From assembly GCA_009781675.1 (NCBI GenBank), contig WQVG01000002.1, forward strand, positions 62,001 to 126,000: a stretch of DNA of 64,000 nt, read 5' to 3'. The position numbers and the translations under genes are program-made. Below, piece after piece: positions 5,141 through 55,629 of this stretch. Origin of the DNA: Candidatus Bathycorpusculum acetigenes (GTDB taxonomy: Archaea; Thermoproteota; Bathyarchaeia; Bathyarchaeales; Bathycorpusculaceae). The notes under the pieces were generated by a model, which had not been told where the DNA came from, did no database searches, and saw only the letters and a program-made list of their open reading frames with translations. Within the stretch, counting starts at the first letter, position 1; every line of letters starts with the position of its first letter.

Positions 5141-5227
5141 ACTTACACTCGCTCACAACTGTGATAGAAGTCAGAGAACAAGTTTACTTTTAAGGATTGT
5201 CCAAATCGACAAGTTGAATGATTATAA

Positions 5228-18099: not shown

Positions 18100-18117
18100 C
18101 AACATAAATTTTGCCAC

Positions 18118-21982: not shown

Positions 21983-22140
21983 AGCCACATTTTTGTTGGT
22001 TATTTTACATTTTAAGGCCGTTTATCAGGCGCTTTTAGGGATAAATATTGTTGTCTTTCGTTTATTGGTCCCTTTATAAGGATAGACCCTTAATTCCTAT
22101 TTAGCTAATAATTAAATCTATTGTAAATATGTTTTATGTT
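21983..22140 (-). promoter_or_regulatory. CRISPR leader
   Basis: AT-rich segment between the conserved end of the array and cas4; contains CTTATAAAGG on minus strand. Confidence 0.75.
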
Positions 22141-22146
22141 TTCAGC

Positions 22147-22686
22147 TTATGGACAAATTTTTCGGTAGCAACAGTTTGGGCAACGGTTATCACGTTTTGA
22201 ATATGGCATATCACCTGAAATTATTGTGTGGTTTGTTTTTTGGAGCATACGTAAGGCAATTTGTTTAATTTTTTCATTAATGTATACAGGCACTTCTACT
22301 CTTTCCGTTTTATTAAAAACTACAATCGCCTTGTTGACCTTTTTTCCGGTGTTTTCTTCTGCTAAAATAGCCAGTAACCCGAGTTGAGTTTTTATTGTCG
22401 GACCTATTAGAATATAATCAGAATATTTACGTTCTATTATCAGAATTTCTTTATCTGTCTCTATAGCTTCGTCAATTTTCCCTGAGAACGAATATTTTCT
22501 TGAGTAAAGGAGCCGTTCTGTCTGCTTGATACCGTCTAAGTGGTTTATTTTGTAGTTTTTGTTAGTGGTTGAATATCTGCTGTGAAAAGCGCGACCAGAT
22601 TGAACAGTACCGCGTTTGTCTTCTCTTTGCTCTATACCGAGCACTAACTGAAAGTAGGTGAATCTTGGACAGAATGCATGTTCCAC
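22147..22686 (-). CDS. cas4: CRISPR-associated exonuclease Cas4
   Basis: EHAFCPRFTYFQLV and CPNCCYRKIC cysteine motif; position next to cas1/cas2. Confidence 0.93.
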   Translation of the reverse strand: MEHAFCPRFTYFQLVLGIEQREDKRGTVQSGRAFHSRYSTTNKNYKINHLDGIKQTERLLYSRKYSFSGKIDEAIETDKEILIIERKYSDYILIGPTIKTQLGLLAILAEENTGKKVNKAIVVFNKTERVEVPVYINEKIKQIALRMLQKTNHTIISGDMPYSKRDNRCPNCCYRKICP

Positions 22687-22712
22687 TGCATTTGTTACAG
22701 TAATGCACTTAC

Positions 22713-23009
22713 TCAGAGAACCATACTCTCCAATTCATTAGTTACATATTCTTTGTCAAATCCGTGACCGATAATAGTAACTTTTCCAAAGCAGTTCTGG
22801 CATGCTAAAATAAGATATACCGATTCAGTTTCCTCTGTTATCCGTTTGAGATTTTCTATTAGGTCTTTTTTCTGTTGGGAAGATAAAGAACCACAGAAAA
22901 CACTCTTCTGTATACGAACAAATCCTATGTTTTTTAGTGTCTGAATGGTATGTGTTCGGGTTTTGTTGTCAGAAATGTCGTAAACGGCATAGTACATGTT
23001 TTTCTTCAC
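22713..23009 (-). CDS. cas2: CRISPR-associated endoribonuclease Cas2
   Basis: MYYAVYDISDNKTRTHTIQTLKNIGFVRIQKSVFCG. Confidence 0.96.
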   Translation of the reverse strand: MKKNMYYAVYDISDNKTRTHTIQTLKNIGFVRIQKSVFCGSLSSQQKKDLIENLKRITEETESVYLILACQNCFGKVTIIGHGFDKEYVTNELESMVL

Positions 23010-23011
23010 AT

Positions 23012-23965
23012 TCAGGTCTCCTTTACGAATATAGCCATTATTTTTCTGCAGTAAAGCCAGCTTTCTTTTTCTACAGTATCAGATGCATCCTGCATGTATG
23101 CGGTAATCACCGCTTTTCGTCCTTCTTTAGATAGGAAAACACCTAACGGTGCATCATCGGAAGACATGAACCAAGAGTCTTTAACTTGTTTTTTTGTAAA
23201 CAATTTCACTACAATACGATCAACTTTAGCCCTAAACAGTTCTATTAGATCAAAAACTAAAGTTGGTTTACCGTAAGAATCAGCATGATATATCCCCGCA
23301 TTTGGGTCTAAACCGCTTAGAATAACAATTTTTTCAACACTTGAATAAGTTATGCCATAAATATAATTGATAATTGCATTAAATTTATCCTGAGCAGGTT
23401 GCCTACTTCTTTCTTTGAAAGCATACTTTTTAGGAAGAATCGAGGAGACTGCGGAAAAATACTCAGCGGCCGCAAAGCCTTCAATTCCCAAAAGGGTCTG
23501 CTTAAAAGAATGGACATATTCCAAGTCGGTTAGGCTTTTTAGGGATTTGTTTATGGCGTTTATAGAGTTGTTTATTGTTTCGTTTGGTGTCTTCCGGTTG
23601 CCCTTGAGATCAACGAGGAATTTTCTTTGTGCTCTGAGTTTATGTGTAACAATGTCTTTGGATATTTTAAACGCTGTAGGCGTGTTTTGGTGCAGATATT
23701 GTTTGCGTCGATACTCAGTTACCCTGCCGGGAGTGCTTACCCAAAATCTTCCAAAGGGTTTGCCAGACCAGTTAGCTAACACAAGTTGAATGTTTTTTTC
23801 TAAACATAGAGCAACCGCTTGGGTGCTAACCAAGGCATTGGCTGTCACTATAATGGCATCAACTTTCTCTGCGGGAATTTCGGTTTTTTCGTTTGATACT
23901 TGAATGATAAAACAGTCATGGTCTCGTTTTAATGTGCTTCCATGTTCACTTATTTCAATTATCAT
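23012..23965 (-). CDS. cas1: CRISPR-associated endonuclease Cas1
   Basis: GIEGFAAAEYFSAVS, INYIYGITYSSVEKIVILSGLDPNAGIYH, PTLVFDLIELFRAKVD. Confidence 0.97.
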   Translation of the reverse strand: MIIEISEHGSTLKRDHDCFIIQVSNEKTEIPAEKVDAIIVTANALVSTQAVALCLEKNIQLVLANWSGKPFGRFWVSTPGRVTEYRRKQYLHQNTPTAFKISKDIVTHKLRAQRKFLVDLKGNRKTPNETINNSINAINKSLKSLTDLEYVHSFKQTLLGIEGFAAAEYFSAVSSILPKKYAFKERSRQPAQDKFNAIINYIYGITYSSVEKIVILSGLDPNAGIYHADSYGKPTLVFDLIELFRAKVDRIVVKLFTKKQVKDSWFMSSDDAPLGVFLSKEGRKAVITAYMQDASDTVEKESWLYCRKIMAIFVKET

Positions 23966-24639
23966 AATGTTCGCCTTATAGTGCCAAATCCCTTTGAAAC
24001 GCTCTTGCCTAAACCGATAAAATCTGGCAGATCAACATTCAAAAAGAAACGCGCAGTAAATGCTTCAAAAGAATTCCCATGGGCACCCACACAAAAAGAA
24101 CTAAAAGATACAATAAAAGATTCAATACGATAATCCACAAAAATACCCAACCCTTTAAGACAACTCAAAGTGTTACCAACTATTATCTTTTCCAAAAATG
24201 CTTTTTGTTCTGTGCCATCACAATATTTAAACTCAGAATAATTAGCCTCATTAAGTGCAAGCCAAGGTGTCACAAAATCATAACAGCAAGACACATTACG
24301 CACATGCCAAGTTGATAAATCTAATTCTTGACTGTGAACCCTAAAACTGCCAAGCCTTGTTGAAATATTATCTACAACAGACATCTTAGTCATGAGAATT
24401 TTGGCATAATCCTGAAAACCTAAAATCATCAAGTCATCCTTAACCCGTTTATATTGAATCAATGGATAATGATAAGACCGCTCCGAATGATGATGAAACT
24501 CTGCGTCATCAACAAAGAGACTGCCAAGAAATCCGCGAAGTTTAACAGACGAAATATAGTTCTGATCAGGAACATTAAGCTTAACTCTACAAACTTTAAT
24601 CACATCCGCACTCTGTTGAACCGCTTTCTCAGTACTCAT
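23962..24639 (-). CDS. cas6: CRISPR endoribonuclease Cas6
   Basis: C-terminal glycine-rich DFIGLGKSVSKGFGTIRRTL; cas operon context. Confidence 0.88.
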   Translation of the reverse strand: MSTEKAVQQSADVIKVCRVKLNVPDQNYISSVKLRGFLGSLFVDDAEFHHHSERSYHYPLIQYKRVKDDLMILGFQDYAKILMTKMSVVDNISTRLGSFRVHSQELDLSTWHVRNVSCCYDFVTPWLALNEANYSEFKYCDGTEQKAFLEKIIVGNTLSCLKGLGIFVDYRIESFIVSFSSFCVGAHGNSFEAFTARFFLNVDLPDFIGLGKSVSKGFGTIRRTL

Positions 24640-26915
24640 TCATTTTTCACCCATTTATCCAATCCTATTTTTGGATCGTACACACAGTCAAGAGCCTCTT
24701 TTTTAGGCAATAAAATATTCATATCAAGCAATTCTTCATCAAGCATGGCTTCTAAACCATTAATTTTTTTAAGAGAACGAGGCAACTGAGCCACATATCG
24801 TGTATAGAGTTTCTGAGTCTTAATTGCATTTGAAGACAAAAACTGTTGCCTGACTTCATCATAGTCTTGGAGTTTGGGCACAAAAAGCGGATCACCCAAC
24901 TGAGAGGGCAAAGCATTCTTTTTAACAAAATCCCAAACAGCATCAAAATTTAGCCCTCGCATCTTACCATCTAGTTCTTTAGATAGGTTTTTGTTTCTCA
25001 AATTTTCAGCTGAGACCGTTTTATAGTAATCAGGTAATGCCGCATAGAGAGCTATTGAGGAATTAAGTTTAGGAATAAGTATTTTGGATTCTTCTACTTC
25101 AAGTTCACTGTAGGGTTTATAATCAGCGTCAACTCTAAAAACTGTGAGCATCGGATCACTGCATTCACCCTCACGACTAAGGCGCCCCATAGCCTGCACA
25201 ATATTATCCAAAGGTGCCAACTCTCTATACATACGACTAAAACTCACATCCACACCAGCCTCTAAAACCTGCGTCGAAACCACCGTTACAGGTTCCTTAC
25301 CCTGAAGTTTTTCTTGAATAATATTACGCCTATCACATTTTCGTATACCTGAAGATAAATAATGCACATCAGGTTTGAGTACAGATAATTGTTTAAAGAA
25401 ATTCACGGCTTTTCGACGGGTATTAAATAGAAATAAAGTACGCTCATCAACCCCAAGCCGCGCAACTTCGCCGGCGTCTAAAGTATCCCTATATTCTATT
25501 TGTTTTACAGTCATTTGCATATATGTTTCTTCGAACTCTTTGTGAGTTTTCAGTGTGGACAAGTTTTGCAGTTCATCAGGTATAGTAGCACTAACCAAAA
25601 GTATTTTTGTGTTATATTTTATGGTAAGTGTTTTTAGTAAAGCTATGATGTTTGGGAGTAAAACCTTAGGTATTGTCTGAACTTCATCAATTATCAGAAA
25701 GGAATTTTTAAAGGATAACAATTTTTGCTTATCGGCAGGCCTATTTGAATAGAGCACCATTAGCAACCTTTGAGTTGTAGTGATGATTAATTGTTTGTTG
25801 AAAGATTCACGATCGAAATATTCTTTAGTTTTGAAAAATTCATGGTCCTCAGTGTCTTCAATGTCAACATCGAACATGACACTATGATCCGTTGATTGCC
25901 TCTTTTCAAGCAGATTACCAGTAAATTCATGATTATAAACTAGCACCTTCTCAGCATCGTCGTGATTAATAACTGAATCAGCGTATTTTGTGCTAAAGAG
26001 CTTGCCTTCGAAATCATCAGTGAGCGCTAGTAGAGGAGAGAAATAAAAAACCCTCTCAAAACGGTGAGTATCTGAAAGTTTATTGACGATATCTAGAAAC
26101 AGTTTTGTTTTACCTATACCAGTGGGTGCCTTGAGGATTGCTAGATTATCTTGAAAACTATTTTTTGAGAGGATATATTCTTGGAAATTCATTCTAACAT
26201 CGGATAATCGAGAGCATTTTCTTACCAGCACACTTGTGTTAAAATTGATGTTAAAGGCAGGTGATGACCAGTCAAAAAAACTGCCTCGATCAGCTTGAAT
26301 AAGAGCTGAGAATACAGAAGAAAAATCCAAAAACTCCAAAACACAATCACCCTCAGCAATAAAATCCATTTCACTTTGGGGTATTTTCTTAAACCTACGT
26401 AAACATTTATCCCAAGCTAAACCTTTGAATTCTTCACGGTCACTAACCATCTGGCTAAAACGTTGCAAGTTGTCATAGGTACCATTATGACTTTTTTCAA
26501 AACATAACCCTGACTTATCAATGTATTCTAGGCTTTTAGTGAACTGGACAAGTTTTGAGTGATGCCCCGCCACGGCAAAAAGTGCTTGTTTTTGGGAACG
26601 TTTGGATAAAGTTGCGATATTAAGTAGCGTATTAACTGCTAAGGCTGAAAAAATTGCATGCGCCCTAATATAGTCACGATTAATTTGCCCAGTTAAAAAA
26701 AGAAGCTGATAATAGGGGTTAAGTTTACCAATATCATGAAGCAAACCAGCATAAAATGCAGCATCGTCCAAACCCAAACTTATAGTTAACTCTCGGGCTA
26801 TTTGAGCCGTTTTTAGAGAATGCTCAAGCAACCCTGAGTTATTCATAGAATTCTTGGGGCGGGCCCAAAATTCAGATTCATTGATCATATTTAAGTCTCC
26901 AACTAGAAGAGACAC
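24636..26915 (-). CDS. cas3: CRISPR helicase/nuclease Cas3 (HD + helicase)
   Basis: HD motif LLHDIGKLNPYYQ; APTGIGKTKLF Walker A; DEVQTIP; QAMGRLSREGE. Confidence 0.95.
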   Translation of the reverse strand: MSLLVGDLNMINESEFWARPKNSMNNSGLLEHSLKTAQIARELTISLGLDDAAFYAGLLHDIGKLNPYYQLLFLTGQINRDYIRAHAIFSALAVNTLLNIATLSKRSQKQALFAVAGHHSKLVQFTKSLEYIDKSGLCFEKSHNGTYDNLQRFSQMVSDREEFKGLAWDKCLRRFKKIPQSEMDFIAEGDCVLEFLDFSSVFSALIQADRGSFFDWSSPAFNINFNTSVLVRKCSRLSDVRMNFQEYILSKNSFQDNLAILKAPTGIGKTKLFLDIVNKLSDTHRFERVFYFSPLLALTDDFEGKLFSTKYADSVINHDDAEKVLVYNHEFTGNLLEKRQSTDHSVMFDVDIEDTEDHEFFKTKEYFDRESFNKQLIITTTQRLLMVLYSNRPADKQKLLSFKNSFLIIDEVQTIPKVLLPNIIALLKTLTIKYNTKILLVSATIPDELQNLSTLKTHKEFEETYMQMTVKQIEYRDTLDAGEVARLGVDERTLFLFNTRRKAVNFFKQLSVLKPDVHYLSSGIRKCDRRNIIQEKLQGKEPVTVVSTQVLEAGVDVSFSRMYRELAPLDNIVQAMGRLSREGECSDPMLTVFRVDADYKPYSELEVEESKILIPKLNSSIALYAALPDYYKTVSAENLRNKNLSKELDGKMRGLNFDAVWDFVKKNALPSQLGDPLFVPKLQDYDEVRQQFLSSNAIKTQKLYTRYVAQLPRSLKKINGLEAMLDEELLDMNILLPKKEALDCVYDPKIGLDKWVKNE

Positions 26916-27670
26916 AAAACTTGATTTGAACCATCTATAGAGTAAAATTTGGTCAGGGATAGAGGGGAGTCATAATTTGTAATGTACAAAACAGAAGTTT
27001 TACCGTTTTCAGGAATGGGGATATAGTGACGCAGTACTGCCCTCTTTAATGAGCCTTCGGCAACATAAAGATGCAAATGCCGCTCAACCAATACCTTAGC
27101 TGGAAAATCAGGATGCTTGGCAAAATCGATTCCAGATTTGCTATCCTTTGACTCCATGACTTCATCTAAAACCACAGTAGAAACAAGCGTGTCTTCAGGA
27201 TCAACCGTTTTAACACTGGAGATTTCTCTAGATCGTTGAATTCTTGCGGGACAATATGCATGTCCAAGCATCGGTGAGAACACAAAGTTGTTAGTCTTTA
27301 GTTTATCAATCAAGATTTGGTTTACTTCATCAGTTGACTTTACATAGATTGTGTATTTGGGATTGATGAGTAGTTCAGTTTTGTAGGGTTTAGTTTTGTC
27401 TTCTTTAAGTGAGCGATGGTTTGTGAAAAAGGTACATTTGGAGGTTTGGTTGTTAACTTGAATTCCTACAGTAGTCTTCTCTAGCAGATCAAGATAACCT
27501 TCACTGTATAGGCGGTCAAATGAGTTTGATCGTTTGATTCCAAGCAGAGCACCTAACAGGCCTATCAGAGCACTTTTAGACGGTATGACAGTTACTGTCT
27601 GGTTGGTTGTCACTGATGGGTCTTTGAAGGCTGCAAAGTCTCCTTCAAGGTCGAAGGAGACTATACTCAA
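26903..27670 (-). CDS. cas5: Cas5 (type I-B)
   Basis: SFDLEGDFAAFKDPSVTTNQTVTVIPSKSALIGLLGALLG. Confidence 0.93.
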   Translation of the reverse strand: MSIVSFDLEGDFAAFKDPSVTTNQTVTVIPSKSALIGLLGALLGIKRSNSFDRLYSEGYLDLLEKTTVGIQVNNQTSKCTFFTNHRSLKEDKTKPYKTELLINPKYTIYVKSTDEVNQILIDKLKTNNFVFSPMLGHAYCPARIQRSREISSVKTVDPEDTLVSTVVLDEVMESKDSKSGIDFAKHPDFPAKVLVERHLHLYVAEGSLKRAVLRHYIPIPENGKTSVLYITNYDSPLSLTKFYSIDGSNQVLCLF

Positions 27671-28683
27671 CTATTGGCCACCTCAACAGGCTCTTCTGTT
27701 CTGATCAACTCGACCTGGATACCAAGTGCTTTAATGTCTGCCTCGAGTTGCTGGGTATCTTTGAGCAGATCTTTACAGGATGCTAAGCGTATTTTTTTGA
27801 CTTTCTCCTTACGGGTTTTGAGTGCCTCAAGCAACTTTGTGAATTTTAGGGGGGATGCTGTTAAGCTACTGGCTTTGCCTTTGAGTGCTGAATCTTCTTC
27901 CACCAAGATGGGCAAGTCATTATAGATGGATCCGTCATAGGTTACCTCCAAAAGAAATACACTCCTCTGAGGGAATTTGGATCGGGTGATTAAAGCATTA
28001 GTTCCCTCCCAAAGGCTGGGAAGCAACTTACTCTCTGCGTTATTAAAGCTCTCCACGACATCAGCGTCTTCTAAGTAACCCCCAAGGTTGGTTGGATTAA
28101 TGGCACCCTGTATCTTAATCAGAGCGTAATCTATTGAATAGAATTTCCCAAATGTGCTGAATTGTTTTTGCCCTTCATCATCTGACGAGTCACCCTTTTT
28201 CTCTTTACCTACAAACCGACCTGAGATCATAGGGTTCAAAACTTGTACTTGATTAACACTTCGACCTATGGCAAACTGTACTGGACCAGTTAACTTGTGG
28301 GAACTTCCTCCGCCACCTTTATCTGATCGGATAGTAACTAAGCCCCCAAATAACGGAACATCAAAAGTTTTAACAGCTAAACCCTTTATGGCATCATTAA
28401 AGTTGTTACCAAGAATTTCTTTAGCTCTCTTATCGGCCGTAACCGGTGTGCCTTCGTCTCCAAAGTCGACAAATAATTTGACATTATATCTATTTTTTGC
28501 ATAGTCACGGATTGTCCGTTTAATTCGCACATCAGTAACAATTATAGTTCCATCAGACATCAAACGGGGTTGATTTTCAAAGCCTGGGTCACCATTTGGG
28601 TTCTGTCTAGATTCATAATAGAATAATAATTCTTTTTTGAATTTTTTTAATTCAGGTTGCTTATTTGCTGTCATATTTGTCAC
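27667..28683 (-). CDS. cas7: Cas7 (type I-B, Csh2-like)
   Basis: YYESRQNPNGDPGFENQPR, TDVRIKRTIRDY, PLFGG motifs. Confidence 0.95.
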   Translation of the reverse strand: MTNMTANKQPELKKFKKELLFYYESRQNPNGDPGFENQPRLMSDGTIIVTDVRIKRTIRDYAKNRYNVKLFVDFGDEGTPVTADKRAKEILGNNFNDAIKGLAVKTFDVPLFGGLVTIRSDKGGGGSSHKLTGPVQFAIGRSVNQVQVLNPMISGRFVGKEKKGDSSDDEGQKQFSTFGKFYSIDYALIKIQGAINPTNLGGYLEDADVVESFNNAESKLLPSLWEGTNALITRSKFPQRSVFLLEVTYDGSIYNDLPILVEEDSALKGKASSLTASPLKFTKLLEALKTRKEKVKKIRLASCKDLLKDTQQLEADIKALGIQVELIRTEEPVEVANS

Positions 28684-30507
28684 CTAAGTTAAATTTTCAA
28701 AAACACCCTTGTAGAAGAAGTAAGAGAAGTCTTCATAAGCTTGGGCATCAGCTATTTCTTCTTTAGCTAAGTCATTTTTTATGGATTGGCCTATAGCATC
28801 AGTATCGGTTTTGGATAGGGATAAACCGATACAGACTCGTTGATAAACAAATCGAAGGCGTTCGCGGTCGTATTTGGAATAAGTTAAAATGTCTTTGGTC
28901 GAGTTATTTAATTCTTTTTCGGTTCGTTTAAATTTTATGTATTTCCCGGCGATAATACCGATTTTATATGCATATTCTTCATTTTTATTCATGAGCGACC
29001 CACATTCATTTTTAGTTAATAGCTCTAAACAAAACTGTGATTTATCAAAAAATTCAGCTGGTTTCTTTTTTGATTGACTTATTATTCCCGTTATCCAATC
29101 CCACATGTAACTATGAAGGATGCAGGTAAAACGCTGAATCAAAAAATGGCGGTCAAAATAAGTGCCGTTCATAAAGTGTCTTATGGCGGTAATATAATCT
29201 GCCCAAATAATGTCTCTGCTGGTTTCTATTATAAGCGACTCTAATGCCAGATGACTTTTAGAGCTATCCTTTACACGGTCGATCATTTTTTTCATTTGAT
29301 CCATCGTTAGATTTTCATCTAGTAACACTTCGAGTTTAGCTTGTGCTCTTTTAGTGCATATAATCTTTAGAGATGATTGATGTGGCACAGTGGCCGTATA
29401 GAGTTTAGATAAAGAGGTATAGTTGCTACGTAACTGATCGTAGATGCCTGAACCTTTTGCATTAAAATTTAGTGAAGGGTCCGGTAGGTAAAGGAAATAC
29501 CAGTCTAAACCAGCTATTCGGATTACCCCATCTGGTGGTAGATTAATCTTAGAAAAAGATTCATTACCTACACCCAAGTTTTGATAGAATTCTTGACCAG
29601 TTTTACAGTTTAAGGTAAATGCTTTGTCATCAAAAGAAAAGAATTTGGCATCTATAGTGGGTTTTGTAGGATAAGCCGTTGCTAAATTCCCAAAGCAGTC
29701 CTCAAACGGTTCGCCTATACGGGCTTCTTCGGGGCTTCGATACTCGACTTTTCCCTGGGACATAAGCGGAAATGGTAAGACTACTAATCGGAAGGAAAAT
29801 CGGCTAAATTTATGGAGTTCTTCAAAGACTATTTTCTCCTTCCAAAAAGAAAGAAAGGCATCACAAACCGCTAGAAACACCTTAGAGGATAATGCACCCT
29901 CGGAAGTGACAACCCCAGCTTCTTTGTAGACCTCAAAGAGCAACTTGTCGCCAACAAAATAACTTTGCGCATCCAACCTCAAAGACAAGAAATCAACTGG
30001 AGATATGATAATGGGTTCTTTGCTGTTTTCAAAGTTATATGCATATTCGTACGTTTTTTTCTGGTTACCAGTTATGGAGAGTAATAATTTATTTTTCTCA
30101 TATTTTCCATAGAATTCTATATATGGTTTCTTAGAGTTTGCGCCAGTTCGTCTATTGGGCAAACCTACTGCGATGAGGTTATTTGAAGGCATGGATAATG
30201 GTTTTTGAAAATAGGTCCGAGGGTCGTTAGGCTTTGGGTTTTCCCCGTAGTATTCTAAAGTTTTGGGATCTATTCTGATAGTAACAGCATCAGCAAAATT
30301 AACAAAAATTTTCTTTATTGGAACGTTGCTACCAATGTCGCCTCCCTCAGATGCTTTATTTTTCAGGTATAATTCATACGCAAGCAACACCACAACCTCC
30401 AATCTGATTATACAATTCTCCATACAAAAGATAGGCAAAGATATTAATAAATTTAATGGAAAATTTTTTAAACCTCTGACAAAAACTGCAAGAAACATAC
30501 AAAACAT
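28684..30507 (-). CDS. cas8b: Cas8b large subunit (type I-B); true start probably near 30390-30423
   Basis: Size and position at head of cas7-cas5-cas3 operon; SD GGAGGT before an internal GTG/TTG cluster (VVLLAYELYLKNK). Confidence 0.85.
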   Translation of the reverse strand: MFCMFLAVFVRGLKNFPLNLLISLPIFCMENCIIRLEVVVLLAYELYLKNKASEGGDIGSNVPIKKIFVNFADAVTIRIDPKTLEYYGENPKPNDPRTYFQKPLSMPSNNLIAVGLPNRRTGANSKKPYIEFYGKYEKNKLLLSITGNQKKTYEYAYNFENSKEPIIISPVDFLSLRLDAQSYFVGDKLLFEVYKEAGVVTSEGALSSKVFLAVCDAFLSFWKEKIVFEELHKFSRFSFRLVVLPFPLMSQGKVEYRSPEEARIGEPFEDCFGNLATAYPTKPTIDAKFFSFDDKAFTLNCKTGQEFYQNLGVGNESFSKINLPPDGVIRIAGLDWYFLYLPDPSLNFNAKGSGIYDQLRSNYTSLSKLYTATVPHQSSLKIICTKRAQAKLEVLLDENLTMDQMKKMIDRVKDSSKSHLALESLIIETSRDIIWADYITAIRHFMNGTYFDRHFLIQRFTCILHSYMWDWITGIISQSKKKPAEFFDKSQFCLELLTKNECGSLMNKNEEYAYKIGIIAGKYIKFKRTEKELNNSTKDILTYSKYDRERLRFVYQRVCIGLSLSKTDTDAIGQSIKNDLAKEEIADAQAYEDFSYFFYKGVFENLT

Positions 30508-30769
30508 TCAGAAACTATCAGAGCTCCATCAAAACGACCTTTTCACAAAATCAGGCCAGCATAATTCAATTCAAACAACGCCCTCTTCCATTCATACAAT
30601 ATACATCAAACGTTTTAACAACACATACGTGATGAAATAAAAACAGGGGATAAAAAACGCAACCAACAACAAAAACTGATAATCGAACAGAACAAAAAAT
30701 AACAGCATCAACTGTGTATAAAGCTTATAGTCAAGCCACGAGTTTAGTTACGACCAGCTAAACTATTCA

Positions 30770-30892
30770 AATTTAATCCTTATTTTGTTGGATTTTTTGG
30801 AATAACATATCAAAGGCAACGAGACAATGTTTTCCATTGTGAGGCTAATATGTAGCATTTCAATCCTTGTTTTGCTGGATTCCTTTTCGGAA
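30770..30892 (-). CRISPR. degenerate two-repeat mini-array upstream of cas8b
   Basis: AATTTAATCCTTATTTTGTTGGATTTTTTGGAA (from 30770) and ATTTCAATCCTTGTTTTGCTGGATTCCTTTTCGGAA (from 30857), same orientation as the main array. Confidence 0.85.
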
Positions 30893-31075
30893 ATCAACCC
30901 ACATCAGCAAACATCGCGACTTTATTAAATCTTGTTTTTCGTTACATCATTTCCAAATGACATAGTGAAGATAACAAAAACACCAACATTTTTGCTCCAA
31001 TTAATCAAATCAAAATGCGCAAAATAGAAATTACCAAGATGTGGCTACAGACAAACAGTAACATACATTCATAAT

Positions 31076-31419: not shown

Positions 31420-31965
31420 TTAACGTGTCATTTCACGACAAGATTCCGCGCAACGTCTGCATGTGGTGGCACATTCCTTCATAAAACCATCTTCGAATCT
31501 GTCGCAGACATCACTGCATTCATCACAGATATCGGCACATATACCGCAGGTCTGTGGATAATAGGTAGAGTTTCGAAGCATAAAATCGGCATTGGTGTTG
31601 CAGATTTTTGCGCAATCCAGAAGCAAATTGATATGCGTAGAGGCAGCATGTTTACCACCCATAGATAAGCAACGCAAAGTAGTCTCAGTGCATGTTTGGT
31701 AACAATCAATAGAATCCGTTATACCTTCACGGACTTCACTATTCATCATCTCGGAGTTTTGGATGTCCTCAAGATCCGCCATGGTTCCAGACATTCGCCC
31801 AACCATCGGCGATTGATTTTCTGTCCAGCCCTCGTCAATGTCTTCTTGAGTTTGCACTTCGGTATTGTTTTGCTCAACATAACTGCTTCGCACGTCTCTT
31901 GAAGTTAATTCTTCGATGTAATCAGGCTGCCTGCTATAGATTTCGTTTTTGTATGATTTTGACAA
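31420..31965 (-). CDS. DUF326 / four-helix-bundle copper-storage-like cysteine-rich protein
   Basis: CYQTCTETTLRCL...HINLLLDCAKICNTNADFMLR...CGICADICDECSDVCDRF...CATTCRRCAESC. Confidence 0.88.
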   Translation of the reverse strand: MSKSYKNEIYSRQPDYIEELTSRDVRSSYVEQNNTEVQTQEDIDEGWTENQSPMVGRMSGTMADLEDIQNSEMMNSEVREGITDSIDCYQTCTETTLRCLSMGGKHAASTHINLLLDCAKICNTNADFMLRNSTYYPQTCGICADICDECSDVCDRFEDGFMKECATTCRRCAESCREMTR

Positions 31966-44774: not shown

Positions 44775-45707
44775 TTATTCTAAGAATTGTGATAGGTATT
44801 GGATAATTAATTCGTAAGCTTCCAAGTCAGGAGGTCCTTTGCGGTTGTTGTTTTCGTCTGTTTCAATCAGCTGTTTGCCGTCGCCTTCAGAAACGGGCTC
44901 ATTGTACTCAATGCGAAACACGCAACGCACAACAGTACCATTACTGGCTTCAAAGGTTAATAGGGGATACTTTACGCCGGGCAGAAGCAGATCGTGTTTT
45001 TCTTCTGCCTTGGATTCGATTAGAAATATTTTGGCTTCCGCCAGCGACAGAAGACTCAGTAGAAGTGAACCTTGATATGGCGGAAAACTGGTTTGTTGAT
45101 TGCCTTGGGTTGATTTCTCTTTTGCTTCTTCTATTTTTGCTACCAAGACATCGCTGTTCCACAGTTCCACACCATACCTTTGCGCCTCCATAATAGCCTG
45201 TTCTGTAAAACATGTTGTAGCTAGGAGGATTATGCGGTTGTATCCATGGGTGCGTTGGGTTTGCTGGGCATCCAAAACAGCGGCAACTGTAAGAGTATAG
45301 TCTTGGGGATATTTCCGCGCTAAAACTGCAACCGTCTCACCGTTTCGAATAGCGGTTAAATTAGTGCCACCATTAGTCAGATATCGACTCTGCACGTCGT
45401 ACCCTAATGCCTCAAAGAGCCATTGCATGAAACCCCCAAATTCCTTATCTGAAAGGCACTCAACCAAATAGGCTCTTGATTTCTGCGCTGTTTTAGGAAC
45501 CTTTTCTACCATCATTCTTACATCAGGTTTCTTGAGGGCGAGGTTGTGTGCTTTTTTTATTCTATCTGCCAGTACCACTGCTTTATCCACTGGAATCTGC
45601 AGGTTATTTGATAGTAACTCGGCTATATCACTGTCTGGCGGTTGCTCTATAATTTCCTTTAGAATACCGCTAAAGTTTTTCTGATTCATTCCTAGACCTC
45701 TTTGCAT
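44775..45707 (-). CDS. Mrr-like restriction-endonuclease-fold protein, active site apparently degenerate
   Basis: EFGGFMQWLFEALGYDVQSRYLTNGGTNLTAIRNGETVAVLARKY follows the Mrr core layout; carboxylates replaced. Confidence 0.65.
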   Translation of the reverse strand: MQRGLGMNQKNFSGILKEIIEQPPDSDIAELLSNNLQIPVDKAVVLADRIKKAHNLALKKPDVRMMVEKVPKTAQKSRAYLVECLSDKEFGGFMQWLFEALGYDVQSRYLTNGGTNLTAIRNGETVAVLARKYPQDYTLTVAAVLDAQQTQRTHGYNRIILLATTCFTEQAIMEAQRYGVELWNSDVLVAKIEEAKEKSTQGNQQTSFPPYQGSLLLSLLSLAEAKIFLIESKAEEKHDLLLPGVKYPLLTFEASNGTVVRCVFRIEYNEPVSEGDGKQLIETDENNNRKGPPDLEAYELIIQYLSQFLE

Positions 45708-47034
45708 GTTTGGGGCATAGTTTCCTTCTGAACTCGTCGGTATAGGTAAGGTTGAGTTTAGAGAATGTCATGTTACAGACATCACAGACATCATAGTGGT
45801 AGATGCATACGCTTGTGTTGTCGTGACTACATTTAAATTCAATAAGGCAACTATGGCGCTTGCCGCAAACTGAACAGACAAAACCCTTGTCGCGCTCAAA
45901 ATATTCGCCTAAAGTTTCATCACGAGTTAACGGTGCTTTTTTGGAGTAGATTTTTCCTGACTCTACAGATTGGCGGATGCAATCTTCGCAGACATAGAGG
46001 CCGTCTTCAGTTGCATAGCCTTCGGTGTGGGTTTTCCTGCATAGAGGACATATTGCTTCGGGGTTATCGATGCCTATGATAACTGTGGACTGTATTGTTG
46101 CTTTGTTGTCAAGGGTAACTTCAAACTTGACTTTTGATGTGTTAATCACCAGCAGGTTTTGGAGTTTTACGGTTATGTTGGTCTGATAAGATTCCTCTTC
46201 CCGTTGTAGAAGTGTCTCATAACCGGATTGCCATTTTTGGAAGTCAAAATCATGTTTTTTGGAGATAACGCGCTCTCGCCGCTCTCGTCTTAGTCGCCGC
46301 TCAAAACTACGTAGCCTCATCTGCTTCTCCTTGCAAAGTGGGAGATCAAAAAGTGCCGTCTTAACTCGGAGAAGTGTATTCAGTTTCTGATCGGCAATTG
46401 CTTTTAATTTGTCGTAAATTTCAGGTTTTATTTTTGATTTGAAGTCTTCAACATGTATCAATGTATTTTCTAAGACATCGGCTAAATTGAACACGTTGTT
46501 GGTACAGTCATTTTCTTCGTTGAGTAGGATGATGAAGGTTTCTTCATTTTTTGTTCGGAGTTTATTTTGAAAATTTACAGAATAATAGAACTGGAAGAGA
46601 CGTATAGGCTCTTTTTTGGAAATCTTTATCGATGTTATTTTGCCGTTGTTTATCTGGTGAAAACAGGGCGCAGTTTTGGTGCATATTGTTAAGCCGTGTA
46701 TTGTTTGGGTTTTTTGGCAGTTCAAACAGGTCTCTTGCGTATCTCTAAAGTAAGATTTTATTAGTGGGTCGAAGGGGTCATTGTTGTTGAGGCTGATTTG
46801 GCACAGTGTACCGTTTTCTATAGATTTTTGGAGTATCTGCTGGAAAAAAGGGCTTCCGGAAGTGAGAAGAGGAATATTTTTTTCTTTTGCAATGTTAGAG
46901 TTGTAGGTAAAGTCTTGGGTACTTCCGTCTGGATAGGCGACTGTGGTGGTATCATTTGTTTGATGGGTAATTATACCGCCTCTGGATTGAACATATGTTT
47001 CGAAGAATCTGCGGATTTCAACTTCAGCGCTCAA
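45670..47034 (-). CDS. multi-zinc-ribbon protein of unknown function
   Basis: CPLCRKTH...CEDC, CSVCGKRH...C, CDVCNMTF; overlaps genes on both sides. Confidence 0.75.
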   Translation of the reverse strand: MSAEVEIRRFFETYVQSRGGIITHQTNDTTTVAYPDGSTQDFTYNSNIAKEKNIPLLTSGSPFFQQILQKSIENGTLCQISLNNNDPFDPLIKSYFRDTQETCLNCQKTQTIHGLTICTKTAPCFHQINNGKITSIKISKKEPIRLFQFYYSVNFQNKLRTKNEETFIILLNEENDCTNNVFNLADVLENTLIHVEDFKSKIKPEIYDKLKAIADQKLNTLLRVKTALFDLPLCKEKQMRLRSFERRLRRERRERVISKKHDFDFQKWQSGYETLLQREEESYQTNITVKLQNLLVINTSKVKFEVTLDNKATIQSTVIIGIDNPEAICPLCRKTHTEGYATEDGLYVCEDCIRQSVESGKIYSKKAPLTRDETLGEYFERDKGFVCSVCGKRHSCLIEFKCSHDNTSVCIYHYDVCDVCNMTFSKLNLTYTDEFRRKLCPKHAKRSRNESEKL

Positions 47035-48995
47035 TCCAAAACGCCCTGGGTGAATTGTTCGGCTAATTCTTGATTCTCTTTTGCCACAGTGAGGTTTTCG
47101 GCCAGTTTTTCCAGTTCTTTTTGGATATCAAGACGTGAGTTACTGCGTAAGAGTATCTCTCCAATGGTTTTTTGTATATCTTGTGAGCCATCTTTGAGAT
47201 CGGCTAGTACGGTTTCCATTTTGCCCACTGTCATTGTAAATAAATCGATTTTTTGATAGAGGACATGTAATACGTAGTCATCTATGGTGTCTTTGACGGC
47301 TAAGTTAAAAATTGTTACATCACGATCTTGTTTGTACCTATGAATTCTACCGATGCGTTGTTCAATTTTCATAGGATTCCAGTGTAGATCATAATTGAAC
47401 ATAACACAACAGTTTTGCAAGTTGAGGCCTTCTGCGGCAGCGTCTGTTGCGATGAGGTACTTAGTTTCGCCGCTCTTAAAGTTGGCAATCACTTGGTCCC
47501 TCTCCGCTTGATTCATATCACCTACATAGACATCGGCCCGTCCAAATTCAGCGTCGAGCATTTCTTTGATTTTGCGGGTTGTGACTTTACGTAGACAGAA
47601 AATAACCGCTTGTTCGCTTGGAATCTCGTTTAAAACATTTTTTAGCAACTCCATCTTTGCGCTTTTAACCTTTTGAGCCATTTCTATTAGTTTATTGGTG
47701 GCTTCAGTTTCCATGGGGAAGCGTTGCTGCCGCTTCTTGAGCGATTCGATGGATGCATAGGGTGAACTTGAAAAGGACTGCTGTAGCGTGATGGCTTGGA
47801 ATACTAAAATAGCATTGCTTTGTGAAACGGTAATTTTTCTTGATGGATTTTCAGCAACCAATGTTTCGATGGTTTTAAAGTGGTTATCGCTGACCTTGCG
47901 CAGGTACTCGGTCGCTTCTTCGATGAATTCCCGTTCATAATCGGTTGGTTCAAGTGTGCGGGATTCTACACATCGTTTTGTGAAGGGGACACCGGTCTGT
48001 TCTCGGCGTGTGCGGCACATGACATCTTGGATGGTGTGCTTGAGGTAGTTTGCTTCTTGGGGCCTCACCACTCGACTTCGGGCATCCTCAGCGAACCGTG
48101 AGATAAACGCACGTTCACTATCTAAAAGGCCGGGTTGGATCAGATCCACAATACTGTAGAGGTCTGTTAAGCGGTTGCACAATGGTGTTGCAGTTAACAA
48201 TAACAAGTGGTTTTTGCGCAGATCAGATAGCGCAGCACGGCCTTTGCTGTGGGTGTTGCGAAAGGCATGTGCCTCATCAACCATGACTAAGTCCCAAGTT
48301 CGGCTTGCAAGTACTTCTTGCTTCTTTAACAACATGTTATGGGAGCATATCATGCGGTTGTCTGAGGCTAAATTGATCCGTTTTCCGCCGCCGTTGATGA
48401 TGGAGAAGGATTCGTCGAATTTTTCAGCCATCTCGCTTTTCCACTGAGATAGAAGACTCTTAGGTGCTATAATCAGTACTGAATTAACCTCTTCTCGTAG
48501 CAGAAGTTCTTTCATGATTAGGCCGGCTTCTATGGTTTTGCCCAAGCCTACTTCGTCGGCTAATATGGCGTTTGAATTCATCTCGTTTATGACCTGTAGT
48601 GCGGTGTGTAACTGGAAGTTATAGGGAATCAGTTTTGTGCGTATGGCATCCGCCGAGATGAGGTGATCGATTTTATCGATTTGCTTTAGTTGTGAGGCCT
48701 CTATACTGAGTTGGAAGCTTTTTAGGGATGCATAGTTGGCGTTTTGAACTCTTTTCTTTATATCTATGGGGTTGGAATAGGTGACTGTGTAGTGGTGTTT
48801 AGCTTTTTTGCCGTGGGGGTTTTCTTCGTCGATTTCGTAGACAACTGTTGCCTGCTCAGGTGTGGAGATTTGTTTTTTTGATTTAGTCTTGGGTTTAACA
48901 GATAAATCGACAATTGCAAGCGTAGGATCAATTGTGATTTCTGTTTGGATTTTGCTGGTTTGTTTTTTTGAGCTTGAGGACAAGAGTATCGACAT
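47031..48995 (-). CDS. SNF2/RapA-like helicase
   Basis: ILADEVGLGKTIEAGLIMKELL, DEAHAFRN, LLLTATPLCNR, ATDAAAEGLNLQ, QRIGRIHRYKQ. Confidence 0.95.
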   Translation of the reverse strand: MSILLSSSSKKQTSKIQTEITIDPTLAIVDLSVKPKTKSKKQISTPEQATVVYEIDEENPHGKKAKHHYTVTYSNPIDIKKRVQNANYASLKSFQLSIEASQLKQIDKIDHLISADAIRTKLIPYNFQLHTALQVINEMNSNAILADEVGLGKTIEAGLIMKELLLREEVNSVLIIAPKSLLSQWKSEMAEKFDESFSIINGGGKRINLASDNRMICSHNMLLKKQEVLASRTWDLVMVDEAHAFRNTHSKGRAALSDLRKNHLLLLTATPLCNRLTDLYSIVDLIQPGLLDSERAFISRFAEDARSRVVRPQEANYLKHTIQDVMCRTRREQTGVPFTKRCVESRTLEPTDYEREFIEEATEYLRKVSDNHFKTIETLVAENPSRKITVSQSNAILVFQAITLQQSFSSSPYASIESLKKRQQRFPMETEATNKLIEMAQKVKSAKMELLKNVLNEIPSEQAVIFCLRKVTTRKIKEMLDAEFGRADVYVGDMNQAERDQVIANFKSGETKYLIATDAAAEGLNLQNCCVMFNYDLHWNPMKIEQRIGRIHRYKQDRDVTIFNLAVKDTIDDYVLHVLYQKIDLFTMTVGKMETVLADLKDGSQDIQKTIGEILLRSNSRLDIQKELEKLAENLTVAKENQELAEQFTQGVLD

Positions 48996-49395
48996 TTACT
49001 GACTGTTTGGATATAAAAACCTAAAATGCAACTCAGAGAGGGTTGTGTGTTCTTCGGTTAGAGTGCATATGCTGATTTCATATACAATGGGCCATTAATT
49101 TAGAAATTTTTTTCATTTGATTTTTGAGAGGTATGGTTTAGTGTTTGGTGGTGTTAGCCTGTAGAGGGTCTTGTGGGCATGGAGATTGGGGTTCGACTCT
49201 TTTTTTAACATATTTATGTCAAAAATGCACAAAAACCAAAACATGTAGAAAACATGCCAATTAATTGGTTGTTTTTAGGGTTGTTTTTGCTACAGCTCAA
49301 GAATTCAAGCTGTTTTGTTAGTTAAGGCAGACTCTTTAGCTTTTAGCAAATTTTAAATACAAATTGAGGCTATCAGTGCTTTTGAGGTTGTTAAC

Positions 49396-52864: not shown

Positions 52865-53419
52865 ATGATCGATAAAAAGAGAATCGAAAACGCAATAAAG
52901 GAAATCTTGTATGCGATAGGTGAAGATCCTAATCGGGAAGGACTCGTTGAAACACCCACAAGAGTGGCCGATATGTATGCCGAGATATTTGCCGGTTTAC
53001 ATGCCAACCCAAAAGGATGTACAAAAATCTTCTATGAACCAGAAAACAGCGGACTTGTCGTTGTAAAAGATATTCCTTTTCAATCTGTATGTGAACACCA
53101 TTTAATACCCTTTATAGGAAAAGCGTGTATAGCGTATAAGCCTAATGGCGGACGCATATTGGGTCTCAGTAAAGTAGCCCGCATAATTGACATATTATCT
53201 GGAAGACCCCAAGTACAAGAAAGGCTCACCGCACAGTTAGCTGAGACAATAGTAGAAATCGTCGATCCCAAAGGTGTGTATGTCTATATTGAAGCAGAGC
53301 ATTTATGCATGACCATGAGGGGCGTAAAAAAGCCGGGAGCTAAAACAGTTACCACTTGCATAAAAGGCAATATCGACGCAAATGACATAGCCACCGTTAG
53401 AGGCGGTAATTATAGTTAA
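52865..53419 (+). CDS. folE: GTP cyclohydrolase I
   Basis: [62 protein letters not shown]. Confidence 0.97.
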
Positions 53420-53426
53420 TGTTAGA

Positions 53427-54671
53427 ATGGTCTATCCGAAAAATCTAAATGAAGCAGAAGAAGAAATAAGCAAAATAAATCATGACCACAGCATCATACA
53501 ATACATGGCCTCTAAGGCCGTTCAGCTTTGCATGTTTGTTGAGGATGTCCCGCCCTTTGTTGCAGACGCTATTAAGCAGATAATAGATGATACAGGCGGG
53601 AACGCAGTTATTCAGAAAGGTTTGGTTAATGGTCCGCTGGAAAATACAAACATTCTCATTATTGGCAACTTAAACCAGATAAACAAGACACTTATAAAAC
53701 TTGCATCACAATCTGAAGTATTATCAGACATAGGTTCCAAAATACAATTTGCCACACAAAGCGTTGAAAAAAAAGAACCAACTTATTACTGCTGTGGAAA
53801 ACATAAACTTGAAATCGGCAAAAAAACATACATAATGGGCATTTTAAACATTACAGCTGACTCATTTTCGGGTGATGGACTTCTATCAGAAGTGCCAAAT
53901 ACGCTACTTAGAGAAACAACAGATAAATCATCTGACAGATTGCAGATCAATGATAGAAAGTCAATTATTGAGACAGCTTGTCGCAGAGCTGAAAAAATGG
54001 TTGCAGATGGAGCGGATATAATCGATGTTGGAGGCGAATCCACAAGACCAGGATACACCGCGGTTAATGATAGAGAAGAATTAGACAGAATCCTTGGTGT
54101 TGTAGAAAGACTGACCAAAACACTCAAAGTACCAATCTCGGTTGATACCTCAAAATTGTATGTTGTCGAAAATGTACTCAAAGCAGGTGCACATATTATT
54201 AATGATGTCAATGGACTGTTAAAAGAACCAAAAATTGCTGAACTGGCGGCAACCTATGGTGCCGGCGTCATTGCCATGCATAACCCAGATAGCCCCATTA
54301 AGGGAGATATTTTCAGTCATATTACCCGATCTTTGAGAAAGAGCGTGGATATAGCTATGAATTCAGGGATAAAACAAGAGAGTATCAGTTTGGATCCAGG
54401 GATAGGGTTTGGTAAAACATTGGAACAAAATTTGGAAGTCATGCGACGGCTCGACGAGCTTAAATGTCTTGGATACCCCGTTTTACTTGGCACTTCAAGA
54501 AAATCCATGATAGGCAAAATTCTTGATCTTCCGGTGAATAATCGCCTAGAGGGTACAGCAGCCACGGTTACCCTTGGAGTCGTTAAAGGGGTCGATTTCA
54601 TAAGGGTACACGATGTGAAAGAGATGCATAGGGTCGTAAAGATGAGCGATGCAATGATTAGGAGAATATAA
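53427..54671 (+). CDS. folP: dihydropteroate synthase, N-terminally extended
   Basis: YIMGILNITADSFSGDG, IIDVGGESTRPG, ISVDTSK, LLGTSRKSMIG. Confidence 0.96.
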   Translation: MVYPKNLNEAEEEISKINHDHSIIQYMASKAVQLCMFVEDVPPFVADAIKQIIDDTGGNAVIQKGLVNGPLENTNILIIGNLNQINKTLIKLASQSEVLSDIGSKIQFATQSVEKKEPTYYCCGKHKLEIGKKTYIMGILNITADSFSGDGLLSEVPNTLLRETTDKSSDRLQINDRKSIIETACRRAEKMVADGADIIDVGGESTRPGYTAVNDREELDRILGVVERLTKTLKVPISVDTSKLYVVENVLKAGAHIINDVNGLLKEPKIAELAATYGAGVIAMHNPDSPIKGDIFSHITRSLRKSVDIAMNSGIKQESISLDPGIGFGKTLEQNLEVMRRLDELKCLGYPVLLGTSRKSMIGKILDLPVNNRLEGTAATVTLGVVKGVDFIRVHDVKEMHRVVKMSDAMIRRI

Positions 54672-54672
54672 A

Positions 54673-55629
54673 TTGTCAACACCAACACCACATATGGATA
54701 AAATAATAATTGAAGGTCTAAAAGCATGTGGAAAGCATGGGGTTTTGGATTTTGAGAGGCAATATCCTCAATCGTTCACTGTAGATATAGAAATATGGGC
54801 AGACATCTCAAAGTCTTATTTAAGTGATGATTTAGAAGACACTGTGAATTATGCCGGCGTTTACGACATAATAAAGACAACTATTGAAACACAGAGCTTT
54901 AGACTTATTGAACGACTTTCTTATGTAATAATAGAAAAAATTTTCCACTATAACACCTGCATACAAAAAATCAAAATTCGAGTTATAAAAGATAAAGCCC
55001 CCCTAAACGGGCAAGTTGATAGCACTGGTGTGGAAATTGAAAAAAGCAGAGACACCACTTTAATGCAGGATGCAGACGTAAAAACAAACATAGATCCCGA
55101 GATTGGTGCAAACACGAACCTAGAGGCTGATGAGGGGTATAAAGCGGTATTGGCATTGGGATCAAACATCGGGGACAGGTATCAAAACATTCAAAAAACG
55201 CTGGAAATGTTGTCTGAGTCCACAGGCATAAACATATTAAATAGGTCTAATTTGTACGAAACAGAACCGGTAGGCTATGTTGAGCAAGAGAAGTTTTATA
55301 ATGCCGCAATTCTTGTCGAAACGACGTTAAATCCCTTTGAGTTGTACAGTAAAGTTAAGGATATTGAAAACAATTTAGGACGAAAGAAAACTTTCAGATG
55401 GGGCCCAAGGCTCATAGATATTGATATAATAGCATATGAGAGATGCGTGATTAATACAAAAGGTTTGACTTTGCCACATAAAGAATACATGCAAAGAGCA
55501 TTTGTCTTAAAGCCCTTATCAGATATGCCTGATGCAGTAGAAGTGGCAGGCCTAAACATGACACTTATAGAAAAAATGACTGAGTGCGCAGATGATTACC
55601 AGGGCTTAAAATGCATTGGCCCTCTATAG
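54673..55629 (+). CDS. folBK: fused dihydroneopterin aldolase / HPPK
   Basis: N-term KACGKHGVLDFERQYPQSFTVDI (FolB); C-term ALGSNIGDRYQNIQKTLEML, NLGRKKTFRWGPRLIDIDII (FolK). Confidence 0.95.
   Translation: MSTPTPHMDKIIIEGLKACGKHGVLDFERQYPQSFTVDIEIWADISKSYLSDDLEDTVNYAGVYDIIKTTIETQSFRLIERLSYVIIEKIFHYNTCIQKIKIRVIKDKAPLNGQVDSTGVEIEKSRDTTLMQDADVKTNIDPEIGANTNLEADEGYKAVLALGSNIGDRYQNIQKTLEMLSESTGINILNRSNLYETEPVGYVEQEKFYNAAILVETTLNPFELYSKVKDIENNLGRKKTFRWGPRLIDIDIIAYERCVINTKGLTLPHKEYMQRAFVLKPLSDMPDAVEVAGLNMTLIEKMTECADDYQGLKCIGPL

What the first reader, a model, noticed from the sequence alone, without database searches (positions are those of the whole stretch)
45670..48995. Overlapping SNF2 helicase + multi-zinc-ribbon protein + Mrr-like protein operon (with 44775-45707)
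Three minus-strand genes overlap end to end (47031/47034 and 45670/45707): a RapA/SNF2-type helicase with intact motifs, a zinc-ribbon protein of no family I recognise, and a restriction-endonuclease-fold protein. Helicase plus nuclease-fold plus nucleic-acid-binding Zn protein is a layout common to defence and repair systems, but this combination does not match a system I can name. Function is inference.
Basis: partly seen in the sequence, partly recalled or inferred. Interest (0 to 1): 0.72.

Follow-up and report, generated by a model that had tools for sequence, protein, structure and literature searches.

The report
Split RapA-like helicase with dead nuclease
Three touching genes in a Bathycorpusculum-type archaeon appear to encode one molecular machine cut into three pieces: a DNA-tracking motor of the RapA family, the motor's own tail carrying extra zinc-binding modules, and a former DNA-cutting subunit whose cutting site has been lost although the gene is kept.

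Summary
In detail: three minus-strand genes (47031-48995, 45670-47034, 44775-45707) overlap as stated. The trio is a fixed unit: 26 of 32 genomes of its genus (Ca. Bathycorpusculum and relatives) carry it in this order, single copy, with changing neighbours; a decayed remnant in a 27th shows loss.

The unrecognised "zinc-ribbon protein" can be placed. Its AlphaFold model matches only E. coli RapA in the PDB (E 3.8e-6); profile comparison beats 199/199 shuffles; it is collinear with the part that follows the motor in RapA and large SNF2 helicases. So genes 1+2 are a RapA-type SNF2 ATPase split in two, with zinc ribbons added. Gene 3 has the Mrr restriction-endonuclease fold, but none of 21 sequences keeps an intact D-(E/Q)xK site, though it is under purifying selection (dN/dS about 0.2): a pseudo-nuclease.

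The same trio occurs on three haloarchaeal plasmids, one with an intact site; related pairs sit beside DUF499/DUF1156 defence genes. In Bathycorpusculum those partners are absent, except 2-3 genomes that hold separate fused systems. Best reading: a defence-lineage helicase-nuclease, split, stabilised and turned into a non-cutting DNA-binding complex. Structure well supported; biological role inferred.

The parts
47031..48995 (-). HEL: 654-aa SNF2/RapA-type ATPase motor (gene 1)
   Evidence: Pfam SNF2-rel_dom 120.9 bits, Helicase_C 93.6 bits; nearest PDB SNF2s incl. RapA; invariant motifs in 21 orthologues
48534..48557 (-). Walker A (motif I) DEVGLGKT, residues 147-154
   Evidence: invariant in A3
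48267..48278 (-). Walker B / motif II DEAH, residues 240-243
   Evidence: invariant in A3
47346..47360 (-). motif VI QRIGR, residues 546-550
   Evidence: invariant in A3
47031..47034 (-). 4-nt stop/start overlap (TTGA) between HEL and ZN; gap -4 recurs in most relatives
45670..47034 (-). ZN: 454-aa detached C-terminal half of a RapA-type helicase plus zinc ribbons (gene 2)
   Evidence: AF2 model pLDDT 77.7; Foldseek top 5 hits all E. coli RapA, E down to 3.8e-6; collinear alignment; hhalign 36.7 vs shuffles 16.3 +/- 3.0, max 33.7
46750..47034 (-). [quoted passage not shown]
   Evidence: architecture in PMC12839542
46657..46728 (-). ZN residues 103-126: first Cys cluster (C103, C106, C118, C124, H126)
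   Evidence: nearly invariant columns
46078..46638 (-). [quoted passage not shown]
   Evidence: DSSP of model; same description for RapA/BrxHII in PMC12839542
45706..46050 (-). ZN residues 329-443: C-terminal zinc ribbons (C329/C332/C349/C352; C387/C390/C402/C410/H413; C417/C420/C440/H443)
   Evidence: invariant Cys/His columns
44775..45707 (-). MRR: 310-aa Mrr-like pseudo-nuclease (gene 3); true start may be ATG at 45689
   Evidence: Pfam Mrr_cat 38.4 bits, 21/21 relatives; AF2 model pLDDT 84.1; Foldseek AF1548, AspBHI, MspJI
45108..45473 (-). MRR residues 79-200: PD-(D/E)XK fold; catalytic positions read N116, L129, R131 in the window (expected D, E/Q, K)
   Evidence: D in 16/21, E/Q in 6/21, K in 1/21, never all three
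44778..45107 (-). MRR residues 201-310: C-terminal domain of unknown kind, the best-conserved part of the protein
   Evidence: mean majority frequency 0.67 vs 0.56 in the nuclease fold
49011..49019 (-). TATA-like TTTTTATAT 16-24 nt before the HEL ATG (possible archaeal promoter)
   Evidence: read directly from the sequence; not tested

Best explanation
The operon encodes one RapA/BrxHII-type SNF2 helicase-nuclease machine made as three subunits. HEL is the ATP-driven double-strand DNA translocase. ZN is the part that in RapA and its relatives follows the motor in the same chain (a degenerate endonuclease-like domain, then a beta sheet with long paired helices), here separate and extended by zinc ribbons; it should dock on HEL and hold nucleic acid or a protein partner. 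MRR is the third piece, in the place of the endonuclease domain at the end of DUF499-type defence helicases, but it has lost its catalytic residues and should bind rather than cut. Proposed mechanism (inferred): HEL-ZN tracks along DNA, MRR and the zinc ribbons read what is bound, and ATP use blocks, strips or remodels the target instead of degrading it. Descent from plasmid-borne defence helicase-nucleases is likely; the Bathycorpusculum version is a stabilised, non-cutting derivative, most likely still directed at foreign or stalled DNA-protein complexes.
For: Shown: contiguous co-occurrence, same order, in 26/32 genus genomes. ZN's model matches only RapA in the PDB; collinear alignment with RapA and fused SNF2s; profile score above all shuffles. 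Split HEL + coiled-coil/zinc partner pairs in another order of the class, haloarchaea and, with a weaker ZN match, cyanobacteria. Full SNF2-multizinc-Mrr trio on plasmids of Halorhabdus, Haloferax and Halocatena, the last with GVD...QAK intact. MRR catalytic triad absent in 21/21 yet dN/dS about 0.20, HEL 0.09, like neighbouring PyrK/FolP. Known single-chain counterpart: Swi2/Snf2 - inactive REase - alpha+beta - active PD-(D/E)XK in Type-1 BR helicases (PMC12839542). DUF499 in only 2/32 and DUF1156 in only 3/32 genus genomes, in genomes that carry fused large SNF2s and not at the trio.
Against: No complex was modelled and no activity is known. Sequence signal for ZN homology is weak on its own (hhalign probability 23-32%); the fold match aligns about 320 columns at TM 0.23 of the query, so domains match better than their arrangement. 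The haloarchaeal trio could have been assembled independently: the HEL tree does not resolve Bathycorpusculum with it, and MRR's C-terminal domain was not found there. Near-universality in the genus, low dN/dS and bland neighbourhoods are unusual for a defence system. Inactivity of MRR rests on alignment of motif positions.
Confidence: 0.6

Rival explanations
1. An active anti-virus or anti-plasmid system: HEL-ZN-MRR senses invading DNA and restricts it, with cutting by MRR through a non-canonical site or by another host nuclease.
For: HEL's best family scores are DISARM DrmD, BREX BrxHI/II, HmaA and DpdE; haloarchaeal relatives sit on plasmids beside DUF499, DUF1156 and restriction genes; losses in several genus members, one with a deletion remnant.
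Against: Catalytic residues lost in 21/21; present in 26/32 genomes as a single copy; no methyltransferase or DUF499 partner; no recurrent defence genes within 5 kb of 16 loci; absent from viral contigs.
Confidence: 0.3
2. A transcription factor complex: an archaeal counterpart of RapA that removes or recycles stalled RNA polymerase, with the dead Mrr fold serving as an RPB5-jaw-like clamp on DNA or polymerase.
For: ZN's only structural match is RapA; MRR's fold hits include RPB5 of RNA polymerases (weak); stable inheritance, HEL dN/dS as low as PyrK.
Against: The RPB5 resemblance is fold-level only (E about 0.007 in PDB); no RapA N-terminal Tudor domains found by Pfam; the genus-limited and losable distribution argues against an essential polymerase role; non-RapA proteins of this architecture are mostly defence helicases.
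Confidence: 0.2
3. A DNA-repair module (for example end processing or fork remodelling) in which the motor and zinc ribbons bind damaged DNA.
For: SNF2 motor plus nuclease-fold and zinc proteins; the same window carries Ku and LigD genes, though 40 kb away.
Against: No repair gene is a conserved neighbour; lost in several near-complete genomes.
Confidence: 0.1
4. Three unrelated genes that happen to share an operon; ZN is a generic zinc/coiled-coil protein and its RapA match is spurious.
For: Sequence-only similarity is weak.
Against: Fixed order and 4-nt overlap across about 26 genomes with changing neighbours; RapA-only Foldseek hits; independent SNF2+ZN-like pairs in other phyla.
Confidence: 0.05

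Closest known systems
E. coli RapA (HepA), RNA polymerase-recycling Swi2/Snf2 ATPase
   Same: SNF2 motor; C-terminal half with a degenerate endonuclease-like domain and a beta sheet with long helices; HP/SP motif aligned
   Different: RapA is one chain with N-terminal Tudor domains; here the protein is split, has no detected Tudor, carries zinc ribbons and is joined by an Mrr-like subunit. Polymerase binding untested.
BrxHII of Type-3 BREX and the helicase of Type-1 BR (DUF499; probably PADLOC 'Hma') systems
   Same: Same domain order as described in PMC12839542: Swi2/Snf2 - inactive REase - alpha+beta - PD-(D/E)XK (the last in Type-1 BR)
   Different: Split into three genes; terminal nuclease dead; no DUF499 ATPase and no DUF1156 methyltransferase in the genome
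Haloarchaeal plasmid loci SNF2 + coiled-coil/zinc protein (+ Mrr), e.g. Halorhabdus tiamatea pHTIA, Haloferax lucentense pSVX82-3, Halocatena salina plasmid
   Same: Same three genes in the same order; HEL about 31-32% identical
   Different: More zinc ribbons (676-1255 aa ZN); one member keeps the nuclease site; no MRR C-terminal domain seen. Annotated only as hypothetical protein / restriction endonuclease.
DISARM DrmD
   Same: Best single family score for HEL (239 bits)
   Different: Far below the DrmD cut-offs (950 and 610); no DISARM partner genes at the locus
Zorya ZorD and Hachiman HamAB
   Same: SNF2/Mrr pairing (ZorD) and helicase plus nuclease as separate subunits (HamAB, PMC10925250)
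   Different: No ZorA/B or HamA/B homologues as partners; nuclease here lacks its active site

Membership tests
RapA-type Swi2/Snf2 ATPase | SNF2 motor with intact ATPase motifs | tested here: met
RapA-type Swi2/Snf2 ATPase | post-motor region: endonuclease-like domain + beta sheet with coiled-coil insert | tested here: met
   present in a separate protein:
RapA-type Swi2/Snf2 ATPase | N-terminal Tudor domain(s) | tested here: inconclusive
   no Pfam hit in HEL; N-terminal 110 aa are variable; HEL structure not predicted
RapA-type Swi2/Snf2 ATPase | RNA polymerase binding | not testable with these tools
   needs biochemistry
Type-1 BR / Hma (DUF499) system | DUF499 ATPase | tested here: not met
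   0 in own genome, 2 of 32 in genus
Type-1 BR / Hma (DUF499) system | DUF1156 N6-methyltransferase | tested here: not met
   0 in own genome; 3 of 32, all on contigs with a fused large SNF2
Type-1 BR / Hma (DUF499) system | helicase followed by active PD-(D/E)XK | tested here: not met
   order kept but active site lost in 21/21
DISARM (DrmD) | DrmD score over curated cut-off | tested here: not met
   239 vs 950, 224 vs 610 bits
Zorya type I (ZorD) | ZorD score over curated cut-off | tested here: not met
   78 vs 1500 bits
Mrr restriction endonuclease | PD-(D/E)XK fold | tested here: met
Mrr restriction endonuclease | catalytic D-(E/Q)xK | tested here: not met

The most novel reading that the evidence does not exclude
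A three-subunit, split RapA-type system (SNF2 motor / RapA tail with zinc ribbons / Mrr subunit) is a distinct prokaryotic system shared by Bathyarchaeia and Halobacteria. It is nuclease-active in some haloarchaeal plasmid forms and became a non-cutting genome-surveillance or RNA-polymerase-handling complex, fixed in the genus, in Bathycorpusculum.
Probability: 0.4. Interest if true: 0.75.

Novelty: new variant of a known kind. Interest (0 to 1): 0.58.

Why it matters
It gives an identity to an orphan zinc protein and shows that a whole defence-type helicase-nuclease architecture can exist as separate subunits, which automated annotation misses (the halophile relatives are labelled 'SNF2-related', 'hypothetical protein' and 'restriction endonuclease'). 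It offers a natural comparison between cutting and non-cutting versions of one machine, and a test of whether immune helicases can be retired into cellular roles in uncultured termite-gut and wetland archaea.

Tried and rejected
Filing as DISARM, Zorya or BREX: scores far below curated cut-offs. Type-1 BR/Hma: partner genes absent. Direct sequence relatives of ZN: none in plasmids, PDB, the sampled phylum outside the genus (398 genomes) or viral contigs; the 22 loci found in genome contigs are all Bathyarchaeia-type MAGs. MRR: no plasmid match by tblastn. The G071 Mrr+zinc protein (L164) looked like a fused relative but sits alone among purine genes without a helicase. Horizontal transfer between the two termite-gut clades was suspected because their gene contexts differ and EF-2 unites them, but the AU test does not reject vertical descent (p 0.098 for HEL, 0.44 for ZN). 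Phage SNF2s are distant and partial. NA-iREase1 in Pfam matches MRR in 18/21 at E up to 0.1, below cut-off in the window: consistent with an inactive fold but not used as proof. The RPB5 resemblance was kept only as a lead.
Full report
WHAT IS THERE. The window lies in a 2.14-Mb MAG. Its relatives in the same genus are Candidatus Bathycorpusculum and related Bathyarchaeia from termite guts, sediments, bogs and digesters (titles; habitats partly inferred from the isolate names). The helicase stop and the zinc-protein start overlap in TTGA, and this 4-nt arrangement with a TTG start recurs in most of 20 relatives. The Mrr-like gene may start at 45689 instead of 45707.

A FIXED UNIT. Within the genus the helicase orthologue (66-87% identical) is in 26 of 32 genomes and the Mrr-like protein in the same 26. 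The zinc protein was found in all 25 of these that were searched; the 26th, G151, has a 1.4-kb gap of the right size between the other two genes. Order is always helicase, zinc protein, Mrr. Flanking genes differ between groups: five close relatives share the PyrD/PyrK and folate-gene context (four of them also the ECF-transporter side), four others share a creatininase-like and another neighbour, and most share nothing. The six genomes without it are scattered on an EF-2 tree; two are below 85% complete. One of the others, G103, keeps a remnant in which a frameshifted helicase N-terminus runs into the last 60 residues of the Mrr-like protein, on a contig that also carries a 93%-identical copy of a gene flanking the intact trio in G034: an ancestral operon lost by internal deletion. 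An AU test does not reject common descent of the two termite-gut clades. Outside the genus, one MAG of another genus in the family (G520, 8% contamination) has the whole trio at 71/52/47% identity; transfer and mis-binning cannot be told apart.

WHAT THE ZINC PROTEIN IS. Sequence searches found nothing. The AlphaFold2 model (mean pLDDT 77.7) shows an alpha+beta N-terminal domain, a Cys cluster, a beta sheet with two long helices, and zinc ribbons. Foldseek against the PDB gives five RapA structures as the five best hits (E 3.8e-6 to 0.014) and nothing else below 0.1. RapA and large fused SNF2 proteins from the same class align collinearly with helicase + zinc protein, including the RapA motif [27 protein letters not shown] opposite FTYNSNIAKEKNIPLLTSGSPFFQQIL. 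A profile-profile comparison of the zinc family with seven such C-terminal regions scores 36.7; 199 column-shuffled controls average 16.3 (sd 3.0, maximum 33.7) and the reversed one gives 20.3. [quoted passage not shown] The window's zinc protein is therefore the tail of a RapA-type helicase made as its own subunit, extended by zinc ribbons.

SPLIT FORMS ELSEWHERE. In another order of the class (G514-G516) a 582-aa SNF2 is followed after 4 nt by a 378-aa protein ending in a coiled coil, a beta region and CxxC pairs. In plasmids the best helicase hits are 569-604-aa 'SNF2-related' proteins of haloarchaea and cyanobacteria, nearly all followed by a 346-397-aa 'hypothetical protein'; the haloarchaeal partners resemble the zinc protein, the Nostoc one only weakly. 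Many haloarchaeal pairs lie next to DUF499 and DUF1156 genes, that is Type-1 BR (probably PADLOC 'Hma') loci. Three haloarchaeal plasmids (Halorhabdus, Haloferax, Halocatena) have SNF2, a 676-1255-aa coiled-coil protein with many zinc ribbons, and an Mrr-like gene, in this order; all three third genes pass the Mrr_cat cut-off. The helicase tree separates the split or short forms from the fused BR-type helicases but does not resolve the order among them.

THE MRR PROTEIN DOES NOT LOOK LIKE A WORKING NUCLEASE. The fold is supported (21/21; pLDDT 84 and PDB hits AF1548, AspBHI, MspJI). At the catalytic positions D is kept in 16/21, E/Q in 6/21 and K in 1/21, never together; the window reads N, L, R. 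Intact relatives in the same class read D...EAK or D...ESK, and Halocatena reads D...QAK; the other two halophiles are degenerate. Yet the gene is maintained: dN/dS about 0.20 (helicase 0.09, zinc protein 0.16; neighbouring PyrK 0.09 and FolP 0.20), and its C-terminal domain is better conserved than the nuclease fold.

WHAT IT PROBABLY DOES. Shown: a motor with intact motifs, its detached tail, and an inactivated nuclease fold, inherited together. Inferred: the three form one complex, since each occupies the place of a domain of Type-1 BR helicases (motor, inactive REase, alpha+beta domain, PD-(D/E)XK; PMC12839542). In that family the last domain cuts; here it should only bind. The likely act is ATP-driven movement on DNA with recognition by zinc ribbons and the pseudo-nuclease, ending in blocking or remodelling. 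Against a current restriction role: no DUF499 (0 in own genome; 2 of 32 in the genus), no DUF1156 methyltransferase (0; 3 of 32, on contigs that carry the fused large SNF2s), no shared defence neighbours, and presence in most of the genus. This contrasts with the genuine BR-type loci of the same genus, which are rare. For a defence origin: the company kept by its haloarchaeal relatives. A RapA-like role on RNA polymerase remains possible (RapA is activated by RNA polymerase, PMC8501970); MRR's weak fold resemblance to RPB5 is only a lead.

LIMITS. ZN homology by sequence alone is weak; the case rests on fold, collinearity and genomic pairing together. Foldseek output did not give the matched RapA residues. 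HEL was not modelled, no complex was modelled, and Tudor absence rests on Pfam. The 22-locus genome-contig scan uses peptide patterns and would miss distant relatives such as the haloarchaeal ones, so 'genus-restricted' applies to close orthologues only. Neighbour scans listed only the 25 commonest families. Taxon names for the genus come from contig titles.

Noticed in passing
window 1479-6118 (-): A Ku gene (2914-3744), an ATP-dependent DNA ligase (1958-2917), a LigD phosphoesterase (1479-1961) and a LigD primase-polymerase (5228-6118) as separate genes: a bacterial-type non-homologous end-joining set in an archaeon.
   Followed up: partly
window 18111-31000: Long CRISPR array (read as ORFs repeating 'NPCFAGFPFRT / SLFCWISLSD') next to Cas genes: Cas7 27667-28683 and Cas3 24636-26915 by Pfam, others by reading; type I, with a 607-aa protein at 28684-30507 that no Pfam model matches in the Cas8 position.
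   Followed up: partly
window 52865-55629 (+): FolE-like (by reading), pterin-binding FolP and a FolB-HPPK fusion in a row: a bacterial-style folate pathway in this archaeon.
   Followed up: partly
L169 6066-9365 (G536): A 1099-aa RapA-type SNF2 protein whose helicase carries what reads like a DnaJ J-domain insertion ([32 protein letters not shown]...).
   Followed up: no
L199 from about 6950, Haloferax lucentense pSVX82-3: A 1255-aa open frame with dozens of zinc ribbons, unannotated in the record (small opposite-strand ORFs are annotated instead).
   Followed up: partly
L128 1149-1903 (G103): Deletion remnant of the trio: helicase N-terminus joined to the end of the Mrr-like gene.
   Followed up: yes
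L164 9291-10553 (G071): A 420-aa protein with an Mrr domain keeping D...ESK at the N-terminus and zinc-ribbon Cys pairs at the C-terminus, alone among purine genes.
   Followed up: partly
window 31420-31965 (-): 181-aa Cys-rich protein with a weak DUF326 match, of the kind of four-helix copper-binding proteins.
   Followed up: no
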